From Methanocella arvoryzae MRE50 (GTDB taxonomy: Archaea > Halobacteriota > Methanocellia > Methanocellales > Methanocellaceae), in assembly GCF_000063445.1 (NCBI RefSeq), contig NC_009464.1, positions 2,108,001-2,172,000 of the forward strand: a DNA stretch of 64,000 bases, in the 5' to 3' direction. The translations under genes were made by a program, and so were the position numbers. Below the pieces are notes generated by a model. It searched no databases, was not told the origin of the DNA, and saw only the letters and a list, made by a program, of their open reading frames with translations. The stretch's first letter is position 1; each line of letters starts with the position of its first letter. Shown here in pieces: positions 1,503-49,166 of this stretch.

Positions 1503-1994
1503 TCGGTGTACGCTACAGCGTGAGCTCCAGACCAGGGCGATGCGCAACAGCAATACGAACGCTGCGCTGTGCGTTCTCTGGTTGCCTGGGTGTGGTGTGA
1601 CAGCAATACGAACGCTGCGCTGTGCAAAACCTCACAGATGCCACAGATTGAAACAGAATCCACAGATTTCTAATGGATAGCACAGATGACGCTCGATTCC
1701 ACAGATAACTAAAAAATATTTTGATCGATTACTCCTATAATCGCTATCGGTAATCTAATAACATTGCGTGTTCCTTCTGTGATATCGTGTAGTAATCTGT
1801 GGATTCAGCAGAGAAATCTGTGGAATCAATCGCAATCCGTGGAATCTGTGAGGATTGGCACAGCGCAGCGTTCGTTTTGCTGTCTCGGGGGAGCCTGTGC
1901 AATCAAGTAATGCACAGCACAGCGTTCGTTTTGCTGTCTCGGGGGAGCCTGTGCAATCATGTAAGGTACAGCGCAGTGTTCGACAACATTCACG
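1503..1994. repeat. Palindromic repeat element, copy 1 (about 490 bp)
   Basis: A non-coding block filling most of the 1429-2120 gap. Its left side carries GAACGCTGCGCTGTGC twice (1557 and 1610, period 53), followed by CACAGATGCCACAGATT. The right side carries the reverse complement, with AATCTGTGAGGATTGGCACA at about 1843 and then GCACAGCGCAGCGTTCG-type units. The middle (about 1710-1770) contains an AT-rich core that is the reverse complement of the core in copies 2 and 3. The outer end GTGAATGTTGTCGAACACTG (reverse strand, about 1977-1997) matches the end of copy 3. No ORF here looks real. Confidence 0.8.
1858..1982. repeat. 54-bp tandem repeat at the right end of palindromic element 1
   Basis: Units begin at 1858, 1912 and 1966 (2.3 copies, exact period 54). 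Each starts GCACAGCGCAGCGTTCGTTT or a close variant and continues TTGCTGTCTCGGGGGAGCCT, then GTGCAATCA. The third unit is cut after 17 bases. The unit also occurs once at the right side of copy 2 (about 16857-16910). Confidence 0.8.
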
Positions 1995-15187: not shown

Positions 15188-15400
15188 ACTGAGCTGAACA
15201 GGCAAGGAGTAATGAAAGGTGGTCAGGCGGGATGCCTGACTATACTATTTTTATCGTAGCGTGAGATAGCATGTCGAACGCTGCGCTGTGCCAATCCTCA
15301 CAGATGCCACAGATTACTACTCGATATCACAGATTGAATACACTACTATTAGATCACCGATAGCAAGCATAAGAGAAGTCGATCAGAATATTTTGTGTAT

Positions 15401-16794
15401 CCAGTATCCACGTGGTGTGTGGTGGTGGTTGGGTGGGTGTGGTTTGTGTGGGGTGGGATTGGTGTGCTTATCCGGGGGCGGGCTTATTTACGAGTCGGTG
15501 TTAAAAATTGGGGGTTTAATAGGTTTTTGTTGATAGCCTGAGCTATCCGGTTGGCTGTTACCAGGCAACTTTTAGGTGTTTTGAGATCATGTTGTCTGGT
15601 CTCTTAGGTAGTTGTAAAATTCTTTCCAAAAATTGTTTCAGCATGTTTTTCATCTGGTTAACAGTGATCTTTGCTTTTTGATGTGTCTTTTTCATGATGC
15701 CGTGCAGGTTCAGGATTAGGTGGCTTAAACCGAATACTAAGGTGCGGTAACCGTGATTCCGACTGTTTGTTTTTATCGTGTACTCCTTAGTCTCTTTATA
15801 CCCGTTCTCGATATTCCAACGGTTAGCGTACGCTTCAGCAAGAATTGTGAAACTCATCCTGGTTACCGGGAGGTTGGTAGCGAAGCCACAGTACGCTTCA
15901 ATTCCAAGATCCTCGAGGTACACGTCATACGTGTACTCCAAAGACTCCCCACCACGCATCGTGTACTTCCAATGAGACACTCCGGTAAGCTCTAACAACC
16001 GGTACAGGAGGGACATGCTACCATACTGTTTCACCGGTATAATGTACTTGTAACCCTGCTTGTCCACTGTTTTCATAACACTGCTCAGGTAGAATCCTTT
16101 ATCCATGAGCACTGCGAAAACACTGAGTTCCTCCGGGACCAACTTTAAAAGTCGTTCCACCACCCGGTCCAGGGGTTCATCACTCTTTTTAGGCGTAACC
16201 CCCAAAGTGAATTTAAAGTTCTTCGCCACGATACTGATCGAGGCATACCGGAGAACACTAACCCGTTTCTTCTTCCGCCCCTCCATCTTCAAAGTACGAT
16301 GCACATATTCATTATCGACTCCATAATACCGTTTATCCGTAGTATCAATAGCCAAGAGGACCGGTGAATCCACGATATCCGGACAATACTGAACCGCTCT
16401 TTTCCATAACAACTTGAAAGAATGATACAGAAGCAGGTTCACCCCGCAAGTGATCTCTTCAATACTCATCCGCCCCAAGAATACAAAGAGTTGATCGCTG
16501 CTGAAAAACAATTTTTCAGACAAATCCTCCATACTAGTCTTCTCCAACGCACACCAGATCAATAGGAGGAAATACCAACCAGCCCTACTGAACTGGAAGT
16601 ATGCATTAAACACCCGAGATAAAGACTTTAAACCAACACACTTATGATTCACATCTGAGGGCGGAAGAGGCTGTCTCATACGTTATTACCACAAACCATG
16701 AGATAACCCCGCCCCCACACAAATACCTCACTTTACTCCACCCCCCAAACCACCAGCAACCCAACCACCAACACCACAAACACGGGGATACTGG
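15401..16794 (-). mobile_element. Insertion sequence with long imperfect terminal repeats (IS4/ISH3-like)
   Basis: About 1.39 kb, carrying one transposase gene. The ends begin CCAGTATCC (15401) and finish GGATACTGG (16794). Imperfect inverted similarity continues for almost 90 bases on each side (15401-15487 and 16703-16794): GTG-rich blocks such as GGTGGTTGGGTG, GGTTTG and GGGGGCGGG recur in order on opposite strands. The flanks show TAT on both sides, consistent with a 3-bp target duplication. The insertion lies within a palindromic repeat element, whose intact form at 29149 shows the original junction. Confidence 0.8.
15558..16679 (-). CDS. DDE transposase (IS4/ISH3-like)
   Basis: The 373-residue protein has the DDE triad: LAIDTTDKRYYG (first Asp), FAVLMDKGFYLSS (second Asp) and YANRWNIENGYKETKEYTIK (Glu in the YREK-like signature of the IS4 superfamily). 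The first motif followed by YYG resembles the ISH3 group found in archaea. It fills most of the element at 15401-16794 and appears intact, with no frameshift or internal stop. It catalyses cut-and-paste movement of its own element. Family naming beyond the IS4 superfamily is tentative. Confidence 0.85.
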   Translation of the reverse strand: MRQPLPPSDVNHKCVGLKSLSRVFNAYFQFSRAGWYFLLLIWCALEKTSMEDLSEKLFFSSDQLFVFLGRMSIEEITCGVNLLLYHSFKLLWKRAVQYCPDIVDSPVLLAIDTTDKRYYGVDNEYVHRTLKMEGRKKKRVSVLRYASISIVAKNFKFTLGVTPKKSDEPLDRVVERLLKLVPEELSVFAVLMDKGFYLSSVMKTVDKQGYKYIIPVKQYGSMSLLYRLLELTGVSHWKYTMRGGESLEYTYDVYLEDLGIEAYCGFATNLPVTRMSFTILAEAYANRWNIENGYKETKEYTIKTNSRNHGYRTLVFGLSHLILNLHGIMKKTHQKAKITVNQMKNMLKQFLERILQLPKRPDNMISKHLKVAW

Positions 16795-16946
16795 TATCTA
16801 TGAAATCGGTCAGAATCATCAGATTCTGCATCATCCGTGGAATCTGTGAGGAGTAGCACAGCGCAGCGTTCGTATTGCGGTCCCGGGGAGCCTGTGCGAT
16901 CAGGTGAGGCACAGCGTAGCATACGATTAGTACCAGATAAATGCGG

Positions 16947-29148: not shown

Positions 29149-29465
29149 GTGAACGTTGTCGAACGCTGCGCTGTGCCAATCCTCACAGATGCCACGGATT
29201 CCGATTGATTCCACAGATTCCTCTGCAGAATCCACGGATTACTACACGATAGCACAGAAGGAATACGCTAATACAATTCGATCACCACTAGCAATCATAA
29301 GAGAAGTCGATCAGAACATTTTATGTATCTCTGCAACTCGGCAGAATCATCAGATTCTGCCTTATCCGTGCAATCTGTGAGGTTTTGCACAGCGCAGCGT
29401 TCGTATTGCTGTCTCACGTCGCATAATCATCTGTTATGCAGAGCGCAGCGTTCGTCACCGTTCAC
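29149..29465. repeat. Palindromic repeat element, copy 3, intact (about 317 bp)
   Basis: The left end GTGAACGTTGTCGAACGCTG (29149) is mirrored at the right end (about 29440-29465) as CAGCGTTCGTCACCGTTCAC. Inside the ends, CTGTGCCAATCCTCACAGAT mirrors ATCTGTGAGGTTTTGCACAG imperfectly. The core GATCACCACTAGCAATCATA and AGAGAAGTCGATCAGAACAT (about 29280-29318) is shared with the other copies, and CAGAATCATCAGATTCTG (29342-29359) forms an inner hairpin. The right end touches the stop codon of the thioredoxin-CcdA gene. The remaining gap 28987-29148 holds GCCCC/GGGGC and GAGTC/GACTC hairpins but no convincing gene. Confidence 0.8.
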
Positions 29466-42984: not shown

Positions 42985-44238
42985 ATGAAGAAAGAAACCA
43001 GCCTGACTGGAAAGATATGGATCGTAATGATAATCGTAATGGCGGCGCTCGCCACTGTGCTGGCGCCGGCGCTGCTAGTACCTGCAACCGCAGCGCCAAA
43101 TACTGCAAATCTGAAGATCGAAGTAGTAAATGCAGATAATAGCCCGGCCAGCGGTATTATTATAACTGTATACCTTAGTGACGGAATTACTCAGCTAGTC
43201 CATAGTAACAATCCTACCACTAGCAGTAAGGTAACTATGAACCAGGTACCTCATGGTATTTATGTAATTAAGGTAACTGATACAACTGGAGCATTGTTAA
43301 AGACGAAGAGTATGGAACTCAACGCAACAACCCCGTGGTTCACTATAACCTTGGATACAATACCTACGCCGACTGTGACGCCGACTCCGACTGTGACGCC
43401 GACTCCGACTGCTACGCCGACTGTGACTCCGACTCCTACGGTGACGCCGACTCCGACTGCTACGCCGACTCCGACTGCTACGCCGACTGTGACTCCGACT
43501 CCGACTGCTACGCCGACTCCGACTGCTACGCCGACTGTGACTCCGACTCCGACTGCTACGCCGACTGTGACGCCGACTCCGACTGTGACGCCGACTCCGA
43601 CTCCGACTGCTACGCCGACTGTGACGCCGACTCCGACTGCTACGCCGACTGTGACGCCGACTCCGACTGCTACGCCGACTGCTACGCCGACTGTGACGCC
43701 GACTCCGACTGCTACGCCGACTGTGACGCCGACTCCGACTGTGACGCCGACTGTGACGCCGACTCCGACTGTGACGCCGACTCCGACTGTGACGCCGACT
43801 GTGACGCCGACTCCGACTGTGACGCCGACTCAGACTGTGACGCCGACTCCGACTGCTACGCCGACTGTGACTCCGACTGCTACGCCGACTGTGACTCCGA
43901 CGCCGACGGTTACTCCGACTGTGACGCCGACTCCGACTGCTACGCCGAGAGGAAATCCTGCTACGATTGACATGAGCGCGTTCTACGTGCGTGTAACAGA
44001 GGTCCCGTCTCCGACTCCTACGGTTACTCCGACTCCGACCCCGGAGCCCACGGTTGAGGCCACGCCGGTGCCGGCCACTCCGACTCCGACTGTAGAGCCG
44101 ACCGTTGCACCGTCTCCGGTGCCGACTACTACGGCTCAGACGTCTATCGGTGACTACTGGTGGCTTCTGTTGCTGCTCATTCTTGTTGTTGCAGGTGTAG
44201 TAGGCGTCTACTATTACACCAAGAAGGGCGGAAAGTAA
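42985..44238 (+). CDS. Surface protein A: signal peptide, Ig-like domain, Thr-Pro repeat stalk, C-terminal anchor
   Basis: Translation from the ATG at 42985 ([20 protein letters not shown]) follows a GGGGGGA run; an ATG ten codons upstream is less likely. After the signal peptide (cut near ATAAPNTA) comes a small beta domain of about 85 residues ([18 protein letters not shown]). A stalk of about 200 residues follows, made of TPTPTVTPT-type repeats, then an acidic Pro-rich part. A single TM segment ([20 protein letters not shown]) ends in YYTKKGGK. The stalk is a likely O-glycosylation target. The last 36 residues are identical to those of surface protein C, and the DNA identity extends past the gene. 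Confidence 0.9.
43366..43951 (+). repeat. Six-base-based tandem repeats encoding the Thr-Pro stalk
   Basis: About 585 bases of CCGACT, GTGACG and GCTACG hexamers in varying order, such as CCGACTCCGACTGTGACG. All encode Thr-Pro, Thr-Val or Thr-Ala pairs. Unequal recombination or slippage here would change stalk length in whole hexamers without frameshift. Confidence 0.9.
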
Positions 44239-44254
44239 AAGTAAATAGGTATGC

Positions 44255-44283
44255 GGGGGCTTTTACGCCCCCCTTCTTTTTTA
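44255..44283 (+). terminator. Terminator after surface protein A
   Basis: GGGGGC-TTTTAC-GCCCCC (44255-44272) followed by TTCTTTTTT. The same structure recurs after surface protein C (44255 + 4307). It probably also ends transcription from the opposite strand in the intact locus. Confidence 0.8.
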
Positions 44284-44493
44284 TATCTCTGGCGCCGAAT
44301 TTTTGGGGCTGTATGTTTTCAATCTTTTTTCGTAGAGCATGTACCACATACAAAGTGTGAGGAGGCAAGTGAGGCCTATAGAGATTAGGTAGCTCCATGG
44401 TCCTATACATTGCAGGAGAGTGGTCATGTCGGATCCGGAGTTGTAATTATTCAGGCTCTCAATAGTACGCAGTCCTACCACGTATAAGGCGAA
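44281..44493 (-). pseudogene. 3' fragment of the HEMGH membrane-protease gene
   Basis: The last 66 or so codons of the gene at 48588-49166 are repeated here almost identically (VGLRTIESLNNYNSGSDMTT in place of NNYNPGSDMTT). The reading frame stops matching at 44493, where the sequence switches to a remnant of moeA. The fragment lacks the HExxH motif and most membrane segments and cannot be functional. Confidence 0.85.
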
Positions 44494-44504
44494 CTCGAAT
44501 GGCG

Positions 44505-47748: not shown

Positions 47749-48545
47749 AAATGAGAAAACTGTTAATTTTCAGCTTACTGCTGGTTTTATTAACCAGCAG
47801 TTTTGCCGCAGTTGCAAATGCACAGGTTCCATGCTTAGTTAAAGTGCATGTGACATACGATGGTTCTGGTGTCAGTGGTGCATCGGTATCGGATAGCAAT
47901 GGCCACGGAGTATCCGACCGTGGAAACGGCCTTTATACATTCGCCGGTACTCAAGGGCAGAGTGGTACAGTATCTGCTTCCTATAACGGGCAGAGCGCAT
48001 CTCAAGGTTATAACATAGGAACTGGCTCTGATGTGACGAGCATTGATATTTACATATCACTAAGCAGTCCGGCTCCGACTCCTACTCCGACTCCTACTCC
48101 GACTCCGACTCCTACTCCGACGGTGACGCCTACAGTTACTCCTACGGTTACTCCTACGGTGACGCCTACGGTTGCTCCGACCGTTACTCCAACTGCAACG
48201 CCAACGGTAACGCCTACGGTAACACCAACTGTTACTCCGACGATTACTCCAACAGTTTCTCCGACCAGCACCCCGGGCAACCCTGCATCTTACAACATCG
48301 AGATGATCAGGGTCACTGAGTACCCGAACGTTACTGCAACCCCGGAGCCGACCGTAGAGGCAACCCCGGCCCCGGCAACGCCGACTCCGACCATAGAGCC
48401 GACCGTTGCACCGACACCGACCCCGGTCCCGACGACCACGGCTCAGACGTCTATCGGTGACTACTGGTGGCTTCTGTTGCTGCTCATTCTTGTTGTTGCA
48501 GGTGTAGTAGGCGTCTACTATTACACCAAGAAGGGCGGAAAGTAA
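47745..48545 (+). CDS. Surface protein C: signal peptide, Ig-like domain, Thr-Pro stalk, C-terminal anchor
   Basis: The 266-residue protein starts MKMRKLLIFSLLLVLLTSSF (signal peptide ending VANAQ). A beta domain of about 75 residues (VKVHVTYDGSGVSGASVSDS) precedes a Thr-Pro/Val stalk of about 70 residues, shorter and with more varied codons than in protein A. The same anchor [20 protein letters not shown] and tail KKGGK follow. Its ATG overlaps the TGA of protein B, so B and C are made together. C may anchor B to the cell or form a complex with it. The 3' end is part of the 363-base direct repeat. Confidence 0.9.
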   Translation: MKMRKLLIFSLLLVLLTSSFAAVANAQVPCLVKVHVTYDGSGVSGASVSDSNGHGVSDRGNGLYTFAGTQGQSGTVSASYNGQSASQGYNIGTGSDVTSIDIYISLSSPAPTPTPTPTPTPTPTPTVTPTVTPTVTPTVTPTVAPTVTPTATPTVTPTVTPTVTPTITPTVSPTSTPGNPASYNIEMIRVTEYPNVTATPEPTVEATPAPATPTPTIEPTVAPTPTPVPTTTAQTSIGDYWWLLLLLILVVAGVVGVYYYTKKGGK

Positions 48546-48800
48546 AAGTAAATAGGTATGCGGGGGCTTTTACGCCCCCCTTCTTTTTTATATCTCTGGC
48601 GCCGAATTTTTGGGGCTGTATGTTTTCAATCTTTTTTCGTAGAGCATGTACCACATACAAAGTGTGAGGAGGCAAGTGAGGCCTATAGAGATTAGGTAGC
48701 TCCATGGTCCTATACATTGCAGGAGAGTGGTCATGTCGGATCCGGGGTTGTAATTATTCAGGCTCTCAATAGTACGTAACCCTACCACGTATAAGGCGAG
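48438..48800. repeat. Long direct repeat, right copy (partner 44131-44493)
   Basis: Contains the end of surface protein C, its terminator (GGGGGC/GCCCCC at 48562-48579) and the 3' end of the intact protease gene. Because the flanking protease gene is complete here, this copy marks the original arrangement at its right side. Confidence 0.9.
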
Positions 48801-49166
48801 CTCCATTTTTAGATAATACAGGACTATTGTACCAGTTACTGTCAAGAGGATGCCGCCCAGCATCACTGTGCTGCTCTCGATACTGCCGGTGAGCAGAGTA
48901 TAGGTTGTAGCGCCATTAAATCCTGATAAGCTGACATATAGGCTGCAGACTTTGGCACCACAACATATGGCGGCGAGGGCATGTCCCATCTCATGGATGC
49001 CGACGAACAGAACGTTAAACAGCCATATGAGAATAGCCGTAAAAATTATTTTTTGCAGTATTGCTGGCAGAGCCTCTATTCTGGCTATCTTATGTAATCC
49101 GTGAGCAGGCGTATTTGTGCCCTGATCTGCTGTATCCTGGACACCTGGATAAGGGGGGCTATGCAC
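48588..49166 (-). CDS. Membrane protein with HExxH motif (M50-like intramembrane protease)
   Basis: The 192-residue protein has about five hydrophobic segments. The first strong one ends in a zinc-binding motif, LFNVLFVGIHEMGHALAAIC, as in site-2-protease-like M50 enzymes. The usual second motif (NxxPxxPLDG) is not visible, so activity is uncertain. The motif might be that of the simpler M50B-like family. It converges on the surface protein genes, and a 3' fragment of it lies at the end of surface protein A. A role in cleaving the anchored surface proteins is a guess from position. Confidence 0.75.
   Translation of the reverse strand: MHSPPYPGVQDTADQGTNTPAHGLHKIARIEALPAILQKIIFTAILIWLFNVLFVGIHEMGHALAAICCGAKVCSLYVSLSGFNGATTYTLLTGSIESSTVMLGGILLTVTGTIVLYYLKMELALYVVGLRTIESLNNYNPGSDMTTLLQCIGPWSYLISIGLTCLLTLCMWYMLYEKRLKTYSPKNSAPEI

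What the first reader, a model, noticed from the sequence alone, without database searches (positions are those of the whole stretch)
1503..1994. Family of roughly 320-490 bp palindromic elements with a conserved core (three copies)
Copies at 1503-1994, 15268-16926 (split) and 29149-29465 share terminal GTGAACGTTGTCGAACGCTG-type ends, inner CCTCACAGATGCCACAGATT blocks mirrored on the other side, and an AT-rich core (GATCACCGATAGCAAGCATA plus AGAGAAGTCGATCAGAATAT). Copy 1 has the core in the opposite orientation. Core conservation between copies is high although no ORF runs through it. This looks like a non-autonomous mobile element or a structured RNA family rather than a random repeat.
Basis: seen in the sequence. 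Interest (0 to 1): 0.65.

Follow-up and report, generated by a model that had tools for sequence, protein, structure and literature searches.

The report
Gene-less copies of a palindromic mobile element
The three palindromes are members of a family of at least 47 scattered fold-back DNA elements in this methanogen, and their closest kin elsewhere are palindromes that carry one small DNA-cutting enzyme gene (GxxExxY), an arrangement that recurs across many bacterial and archaeal phyla and looks like an unrecognised kind of mobile element.

Summary
Three copies lie in the window; copy 2 is one element split by a 1.4-kb IS. The 3.18-Mb genome holds 47 copies with the full core (E<1e-17), plus about 20 with a shorter or diverged core. 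They are long fold-backs: outer 53- or 73-76-bp units (CGAACGCTGCGCTGTGC), inner arms of repeated CACAGATT units, and an asymmetric core of about 100 nt. They lie between genes, half of them between convergent ones. In a same-genus species the site of copy 1 is empty.

"Non-autonomous mobile element" is supported. One copy encloses a GxxExxY gene (PD-(D/E)XK nuclease). Across many phyla, GxxExxY genes sit between inverted arrays of similar ~11-bp units (50 of 76 loci exceed the 99th percentile of controls). A related genome carries arm-gene-arm units 89.6-98.6% identical at unrelated sites. Another archaeal genus has scattered copies with the nuclease gene internally deleted.

I read the window copies as gene-less members of a GxxExxY-associated fold-back element. 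Whether the nuclease itself drives the movement is inferred, not shown.

The parts
1503..1994 (-). Copy 1: fold-back element, core on the minus strand
   Evidence: absent from the orthologous intergenic region of same-genus genome G001 (176 bp there, 685 bp here)
1556..1625 (.). Copy 1, outer units CGAACGCTGCGCTGTGC (two copies, 53-bp spacing) on the left side
1630..1713 (.). Copy 1, inner arm of CACAGAT(T) units
   Evidence: inverted repeat I1: 73 nt, 86% complementary
1695..1792 (-). Copy 1, asymmetric core
   Evidence: model R1, E=2.6e-23
1858..1982 (.). Copy 1, right outer units (three AGCGCAGCGTTCG-type units, 54-bp spacing)
15268..15398 (+). Copy 2, left half (outer unit, CACAGATT arm, core)
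   Evidence: core 15317-15400, E=5e-20
15402..16793 (-). IS inserted in copy 2 (ends CAGTATCC...GGATACTG)
   Evidence: four other near-identical copies in the genome, all inside elements of this family
15558..16679 (-). Transposase ORF of the IS, 373 aa, DDE_Tnp_1
16794..16926 (+). Copy 2, right half
   Evidence: arm motifs at 16860 and 16913
29149..29465 (+). Copy 3: complete fold-back element
29242..29336 (+). Copy 3, asymmetric core
   Evidence: E=5e-24

Best explanation
The three palindromes are gene-less, non-autonomous copies of a fold-back mobile element. In its coding form the element consists of two long inverted arms, each built of short (about 11-bp) repeated units, around a single gene: a 115-135-residue PD-(D/E)XK nuclease of the GxxExxY family (TIGR04256/PF13366), whose fold resembles Cas4 and lambda exonuclease. 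SHOWN: copy number, architecture, the IS in copy 2, the empty site of copy 1 in a same-genus genome, a GxxExxY gene enclosed by arms of this same family at genome position 1,938,259-1,938,660, the general association of GxxExxY genes with such arms, arm-gene-arm units repeated at unrelated sites in a related genome, and internal-deletion derivatives in another archaeal genus. INFERRED: the nuclease recognises the repeated arm units or the extruded hairpin and cuts there, starting excision or recombinational copying of the element into new, mostly intergenic, sites. Gene-less copies such as those in the window would be mobilised in trans and then decay.
For: 47 strong core copies in one genome, 76-100% identical to window copy 3 for those scored. 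Intergenic, 24 of 47 between convergent ORFs. Orthologous site empty in G001: 176 bp against 685 bp. The GxxExxY gene of this genome lies between arms that match all 47 elements on both sides. In 76 GxxExxY loci taken from a scan of one genome per species, the inverted-repeat score of the 150-bp flanks has median 23, against 10 for shifted windows (n=493) and 11 for cross-locus pairs; 50 of 76 exceed the 99th percentile of the shifted windows; p=9e-32. Unit pairs are present on both sides in 48 of 76 loci against 0 of 640 shifted windows. In G003, arm-gene-arm units of 643 bp (98.6% identical, 2 sites) and about 770 bp (89.6-95.6%, 3 sites) have unrelated flanks and no other gene. In genus g61, ~290-bp elements with fixed ends keep the arms and the first ~36-43 and last codons of GxxExxY with the middle deleted. 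Same-genus G001 has gene-less elements whose arms match the flanks of its own two GxxExxY genes. Catalytic D, E-x-K and QxxxY residues are invariant or nearly so in 40 sequences; the fold matches Cas4 SSO0001 and lambda-exonuclease-type nucleases.
Against: No target-site duplication or uniform terminus was found for the window's own family. The only clean TSDs (7-9 bp) belong to a G001 element with classical TIRs, which points to an ordinary DDE transposase there. Neither window copies nor cores keep any recognised remnant of the nuclease gene. In this genome the gene-bearing copy is compound (a complete element, then the gene, then half an inverted element). PD-(D/E)XK nucleases have no strand-transfer activity of their own. 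No element DNA was found in 59 other genomes, so the family is species-specific at DNA level.
Confidence: 0.62

Rival explanations
1. The palindromes are MITEs moved in trans by a conventional DDE transposase. GxxExxY is only cargo or a resident that lives in palindromes.
For: The G001 gene-less element with palindromic arms has TIRs GACTCTTCTGC/GCAGAAGAACC and 7-9-bp TSDs in 7 of 9 copies (permutation 1/2000). A nested element at genome 92,771-93,383 has similar TIRs and a 9-bp TSD. Two copies of the short subfamily sit in a 338-bp unit with GTATAGT TIRs.
Against: No TSD and no constant TIR in the window family. The G003 and g61 elements have fixed ends without clear TSDs. The arm-GxxExxY-arm architecture recurs across phyla with unrelated arm sequences, which plain cargo would not explain.
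Confidence: 0.2
2. Homing: the palindromes spread by other means, and the GxxExxY gene is a homing endonuclease that cuts gene-less palindromes and copies itself into their loops.
For: The gene sits in the loop of palindromes whose gene-less copies are many. In this genome the gene copy looks like a gene placed between one complete and one half element. Homing endonucleases with the PD-(D/E)XK fold exist (general knowledge).
Against: In g61 the gene-less copies are internal deletions of the gene-bearing form, not ancestral empty forms. G003 units moved as whole arm-gene-arm units to sites with unrelated flanks.
Confidence: 0.12
3. A structured RNA family (regulatory or antisense RNA) conserved for its transcript.
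For: Very stable predicted folds and a conserved asymmetric core (84% mean column identity).
Against: No compensatory change between arms, no Rfam match, no homologue in 59 relatives, and the core orientation is not fixed relative to neighbouring genes.
Confidence: 0.04
4. REP/REPIN-like elements mobilised by a RAYT (Y1 HUH transposase).
For: Same kind of layout: palindromic extragenic repeats whose family members flank one nuclease-type gene; RAYT-REPIN is the closest functional parallel (PMC3116915, PMC2817692).
Against: No Y1 transposase (PF01797) in this genome, while the same search rings in E. coli and Methanosarcina acetivorans controls. Elements are several times longer and built of repeated units.
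Confidence: 0.02

Closest known systems
REPINs and RAYTs (REP-associated tyrosine transposases)
   Same: Dispersed, extragenic palindromic elements in high copy, associated with a nuclease gene that is flanked by the same palindromes (PMC3116915, PMC2817692).
   Different: RAYTs are HUH Y1 transposases and single-copy; here the gene is a Cas4/RecB-like PD-(D/E)XK protein, often multi-copy, and the arms are long arrays of ~11-bp units. No Y1 transposase in this genome.
MITEs / fold-back transposons of prokaryotes
   Same: Short non-autonomous inverted-repeat elements, many copies, internal-deletion derivatives of a coding element.
   Different: The window family shows no uniform TIR and no TSD; the coding element carries no DDE or HUH transposase.
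GxxExxY protein family (TIGR04256, PF13366 PDDEXK_3)
   Same: The gene found between arms of this family is a full-length member (E=3e-41).
   Different: No described function or repeat association was found in the papers searched.
Cas4 (SSO0001) and lambda exonuclease / LHK-Exo
   Same: Closest folds of the predicted GxxExxY structure; weak Cas4 profile match.
   Different: TM-score only about 0.5 and no Foldseek match below E=0.001; much smaller protein; no CRISPR context was looked for systematically.

Membership tests
GxxExxY-associated fold-back element (class proposed here) | Inverted arms built of short direct-repeat units (CRC-RAG/CACAGAT type) | tested here: met
   CACAGATT units in both arms
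GxxExxY-associated fold-back element (class proposed here) | A coding copy with the same arms around a GxxExxY gene in the same genome | tested here: met
   gene at 1,938,259-1,938,660; arms on both sides match all 47 elements
GxxExxY-associated fold-back element (class proposed here) | Gene-less copies arise by internal deletion of the coding copy | tested here: inconclusive
   Shown in genus g61; no gene remnant recognised in the cores of this genome
MITE | Uniform terminal inverted repeats | tested here: not met
   several end types, variable unit number
MITE | Target-site duplication | tested here: inconclusive
   none recognisable, but ends are not sharply defined in this family
MITE | Related autonomous transposon with the same ends | tested here: inconclusive
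   A GxxExxY copy exists; no transposase gene seen inside any copy fetched, apart from the inserted IS
REPIN/RAYT | Y1 (HUH) transposase in the genome | tested here: not met
   PF01797 absent, controls positive
Structured RNA family | Compensatory base changes in the stem | tested here: not met
Structured RNA family | Discrete transcript | not testable with these tools
   no RNA data
PD-(D/E)XK nuclease (the associated protein) | D...E-x-K active site and fold | tested here: met
   invariant D67, E77, K79, Q91, Y95; AlphaFold pLDDT 94, best PDB folds Cas4 and lambda exonuclease

The most novel reading that the evidence does not exclude
GxxExxY elements are a distinct, very widespread class of minimal transposable element of bacteria and archaea. 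They consist of nothing but one small Cas4/RecB-like nuclease and two arms of ~11-bp repeat units that form a hairpin, and they move by nuclease action on that hairpin without a DDE, HUH, tyrosine or serine transposase. The window's palindromes are their non-autonomous progeny.
Probability: 0.35. Interest if true: 0.92.

Novelty: new variant of a known kind. Interest (0 to 1): 0.72.

Why it matters
Short palindromic arrays of the type ACCACAGAGGACACAGAG flank GxxExxY genes in many environmental genomes and have no explanation that I could find in the papers searched. Tying them to one named but uncharacterised nuclease family gives those repeats a probable origin, gives GxxExxY proteins a probable function, and sets out an experiment. 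If the nuclease moves its own element, it would be a transposition mechanism outside the known transposase classes.

Tried and rejected
Structured RNA: rejected on arm covariation and Rfam. RAYT/REPIN: no Y1 transposase. Core as remnant of the nuclease gene: no resemblance seen by eye when reading the core; no formal test was run. Copies in relatives by DNA: none in 59 genomes, so comparison had to go through GxxExxY flanks and synteny. A first alignment for the genome scan was too diverse. Search of a complete Flavobacterium genome with its own element gave one further arm hit only, so high copy number is not universal. PDB sequence search with the GxxExxY profile: nothing. GxxExxY in phage records: none; in plasmids: 8 records. 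Literature: two papers mention GxxExxY and one PF13366. One search found no repeat link in the one paper read; the other two were not read. No paper on such repeats was found in the open library; subscription journals and preprints are not covered. The unit pattern was written after seeing the loci, so the unbiased figure is the inverted-repeat score. The 80 loci are the best matches to an archaeal query, not a random sample of the family.

Full report
WHAT IS THERE. The window is bases 2,108,001-2,172,000 of a single-contig archaeal genome of 3,179,916 bp. That length is the one I remember for Methanocella arvoryzae MRE50; the name is from memory, not from a tool. The three copies are real: 80-85% identical to each other over 251-295 aligned bases, with fold-back energies 10-13 standard deviations below shuffles for copies 3 and 1. 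Copy 2 is one element cut open by an IS of about 1.4 kb (ends CAGTATCC/GGATACTG, DDE transposase).

COPY NUMBER AND ANATOMY. A sequence-only model of the core (28 copies) finds 47 strong matches (E below 1e-17) and a handful of weak ones in the genome. The arm motif AGCGCAGCGTTCG with up to one mismatch occurs 239 times, against 2 for the reversed control. From outside inwards an element has one to seven outer units (53 or 73-76 bp, containing CGAACGCTGCGCTGTGC), an inner arm of CACAGATT-like units about 20 bp or less apart, an asymmetric core of about 100 nt, and the mirror image. A second subfamily has a shorter core. Ends are mosaic and no common terminus or target duplication could be recognised. 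Of the 47, 24 lie between convergent ORFs; that call also reported nine cores overlapped by an ORF of 80 aa or more, which I take to be spurious ORFs but did not check further.

MOBILITY OF THIS FAMILY. In same-genus genome G001 the neighbours of copy 1 (an AAA/RNA-binding ORF at 478-1428 minus and the ORF starting near 2130) are conserved but separated by 176 bp instead of 685: the site is empty. At the site of copy 2, G002 has 398 bp against 1791, and G001 has a different palindromic element. No copy of the family itself is found in 59 other genomes. All five full copies of the IS lie inside elements of this family; as the family covers under 1% of the genome by my estimate, this is not chance.

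NOT AN RNA. If the stem were under selection as RNA, the two arms of one copy should match each other better than arms of different copies. In 45 copies they do not (46.2 against 47.5; the permutation test gives p=0.9986 for own > cross). The arms decay independently, as expected of dead DNA copies. Rfam has no match.

THE LINK TO GxxExxY. One locus, 1,937,785-1,938,770, has a GxxExxY gene (PF13366/TIGR04256) between arms of this family. A complete but diverged element lies on the left, and an inverted half element begins at the gene's stop codon on the right; both match all 47 elements. I therefore asked whether this is general. A scan of one genome per species gave 80 GxxExxY loci from many phyla. 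Inverted repeats between the 150-bp flanks score a median of 23, against 10 for shifted windows in the same loci and 11 for cross-locus pairs; 50 of 76 exceed the 99th percentile of the shifted windows, p=9e-32. The flanks read like ACCACAGAGGACACAGAGGGCACAGAG ... CTCTGTGTACTCTGTGCCCTCTGTGGT, each genome with its own variant of the unit. An earlier set from the same phylum gave the same answer (24 loci, p=2e-8). Units are often translated in frame at the protein's N-terminus (TAENAESAEM, PQRAQRAQR), a sign of how tightly gene and arms are joined.

THE CODING UNIT MOVES, AND DEGRADES TO GENE-LESS FORMS. In same-family genome G003, two units of 643 bp are 98.6% identical and three of about 770 bp are 89.6-95.6% identical, each at sites with unrelated flanks; they hold arms and the GxxExxY gene and nothing else. 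In four genomes of another genus (g61), elements of about 290 bp with fixed ends (CAAGAAAGAATAAA ... CTTTATATACA), scattered in dozens of BLAST matches, keep the arms and the first and last codons of GxxExxY with the middle lost. In G001 the arms of gene-less elements match the flanks of its own GxxExxY genes.

THE PROTEIN. In 40 sequences D67, E77, K79, Q91 and Y95 are invariant. The predicted structure (pLDDT 94) is closest to Cas4 SSO0001 and to LHK/lambda exonucleases, with TM-scores of about 0.5, and there is a weak Cas4 profile hit. The gene is absent from the phage records searched and rare on plasmids.

WHAT REMAINS INFERRED. That the nuclease drives the movement is not shown. Ordinary transposases probably move some neighbouring palindromic elements: a G001 element has TIRs and 7-9-bp duplications, a nested element here has a 9-bp duplication, and a 338-bp unit with GTATAGT ends carries the short subfamily. 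So mobilisation in trans by a DDE transposase, with GxxExxY as passenger, is the main rival. Homing of the gene into pre-existing palindromes is the second. No literature on the association was found in the open library, which does not prove that none exists.

VERDICT. The finding is real and larger than described. The window's copies are gene-less members of a fold-back mobile element that belongs with the GxxExxY-flanking palindromes found across prokaryotes. It works like REPIN-RAYT in layout but is not a member: the defining Y1 transposase is absent.

Noticed in passing
window 15402-16793; genome 237718-239110, 951103-952497, 1859877-1861269, 2643476-2644870: All five full, near-identical copies of this IS are inserted inside the palindromic elements, so it seems to target them, as some ISs target REP sequences in bacteria.
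   Followed up: partly
L093/L094, genome 355246-355583 and 607902-608239: A 338-bp unit with GTATAGT...CTATAC inverted ends (98.8% identical pair) carries the short subfamily inside it and lies in yet another palindrome of CACGAAGTACACAAGG type, in opposite orientations in the two copies.
   Followed up: partly
L091, genome 92771-93383: A GGAGGTC-repeat palindromic element is nested in a short-subfamily element with a 9-bp duplication (ACAATAGAT) and ends resembling those of the G001 element (CTCTTCTCCA / CTCTTCTGCA).
   Followed up: partly
L299-L310 (G001): A recent burst of ~345-bp gene-less elements with GCGACGG arms, ends GACTCTTCTGC/GCAGAAGAACC and 7-9-bp A/T-rich target duplications in 7 of 9 copies.
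   Followed up: yes
L229-L247 and L253-L282 (G184, G204, G273, G219): Internal-deletion derivatives of a GxxExxY element, with fixed ends and no target duplication; the right flank is A-rich, perhaps terminator tracts. The terminal ~69 bp occur alone in many more places.
   Followed up: partly
L105, L110, L111, L125, L129 and others: The arm repeats run in frame into the GxxExxY ORF (LYLFTAENAESAEM, PQRAQRAQR, INADERR), so annotated N-termini of this family may often be translated repeat.
   Followed up: no
all 45 complete copies: Arms within one copy are slightly less complementary than arms of different copies (99.86% of shuffles score at least as high), as if the most perfect palindromes had been lost.
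   Followed up: no
L065, genome 526881-527256: One copy has six left outer units about 75 bp apart, about 96% identical: outer units expand by tandem duplication.
   Followed up: no
window 44038-44496 and 48339-48803: A direct repeat of about 460 bp, 94% identical, unrelated to the palindromes.
   Followed up: no
L011, genome 1363477-1363691: A perfect tandem repeat with a 32-bp period about 1.2 kb from one element; nature not checked.
   Followed up: no
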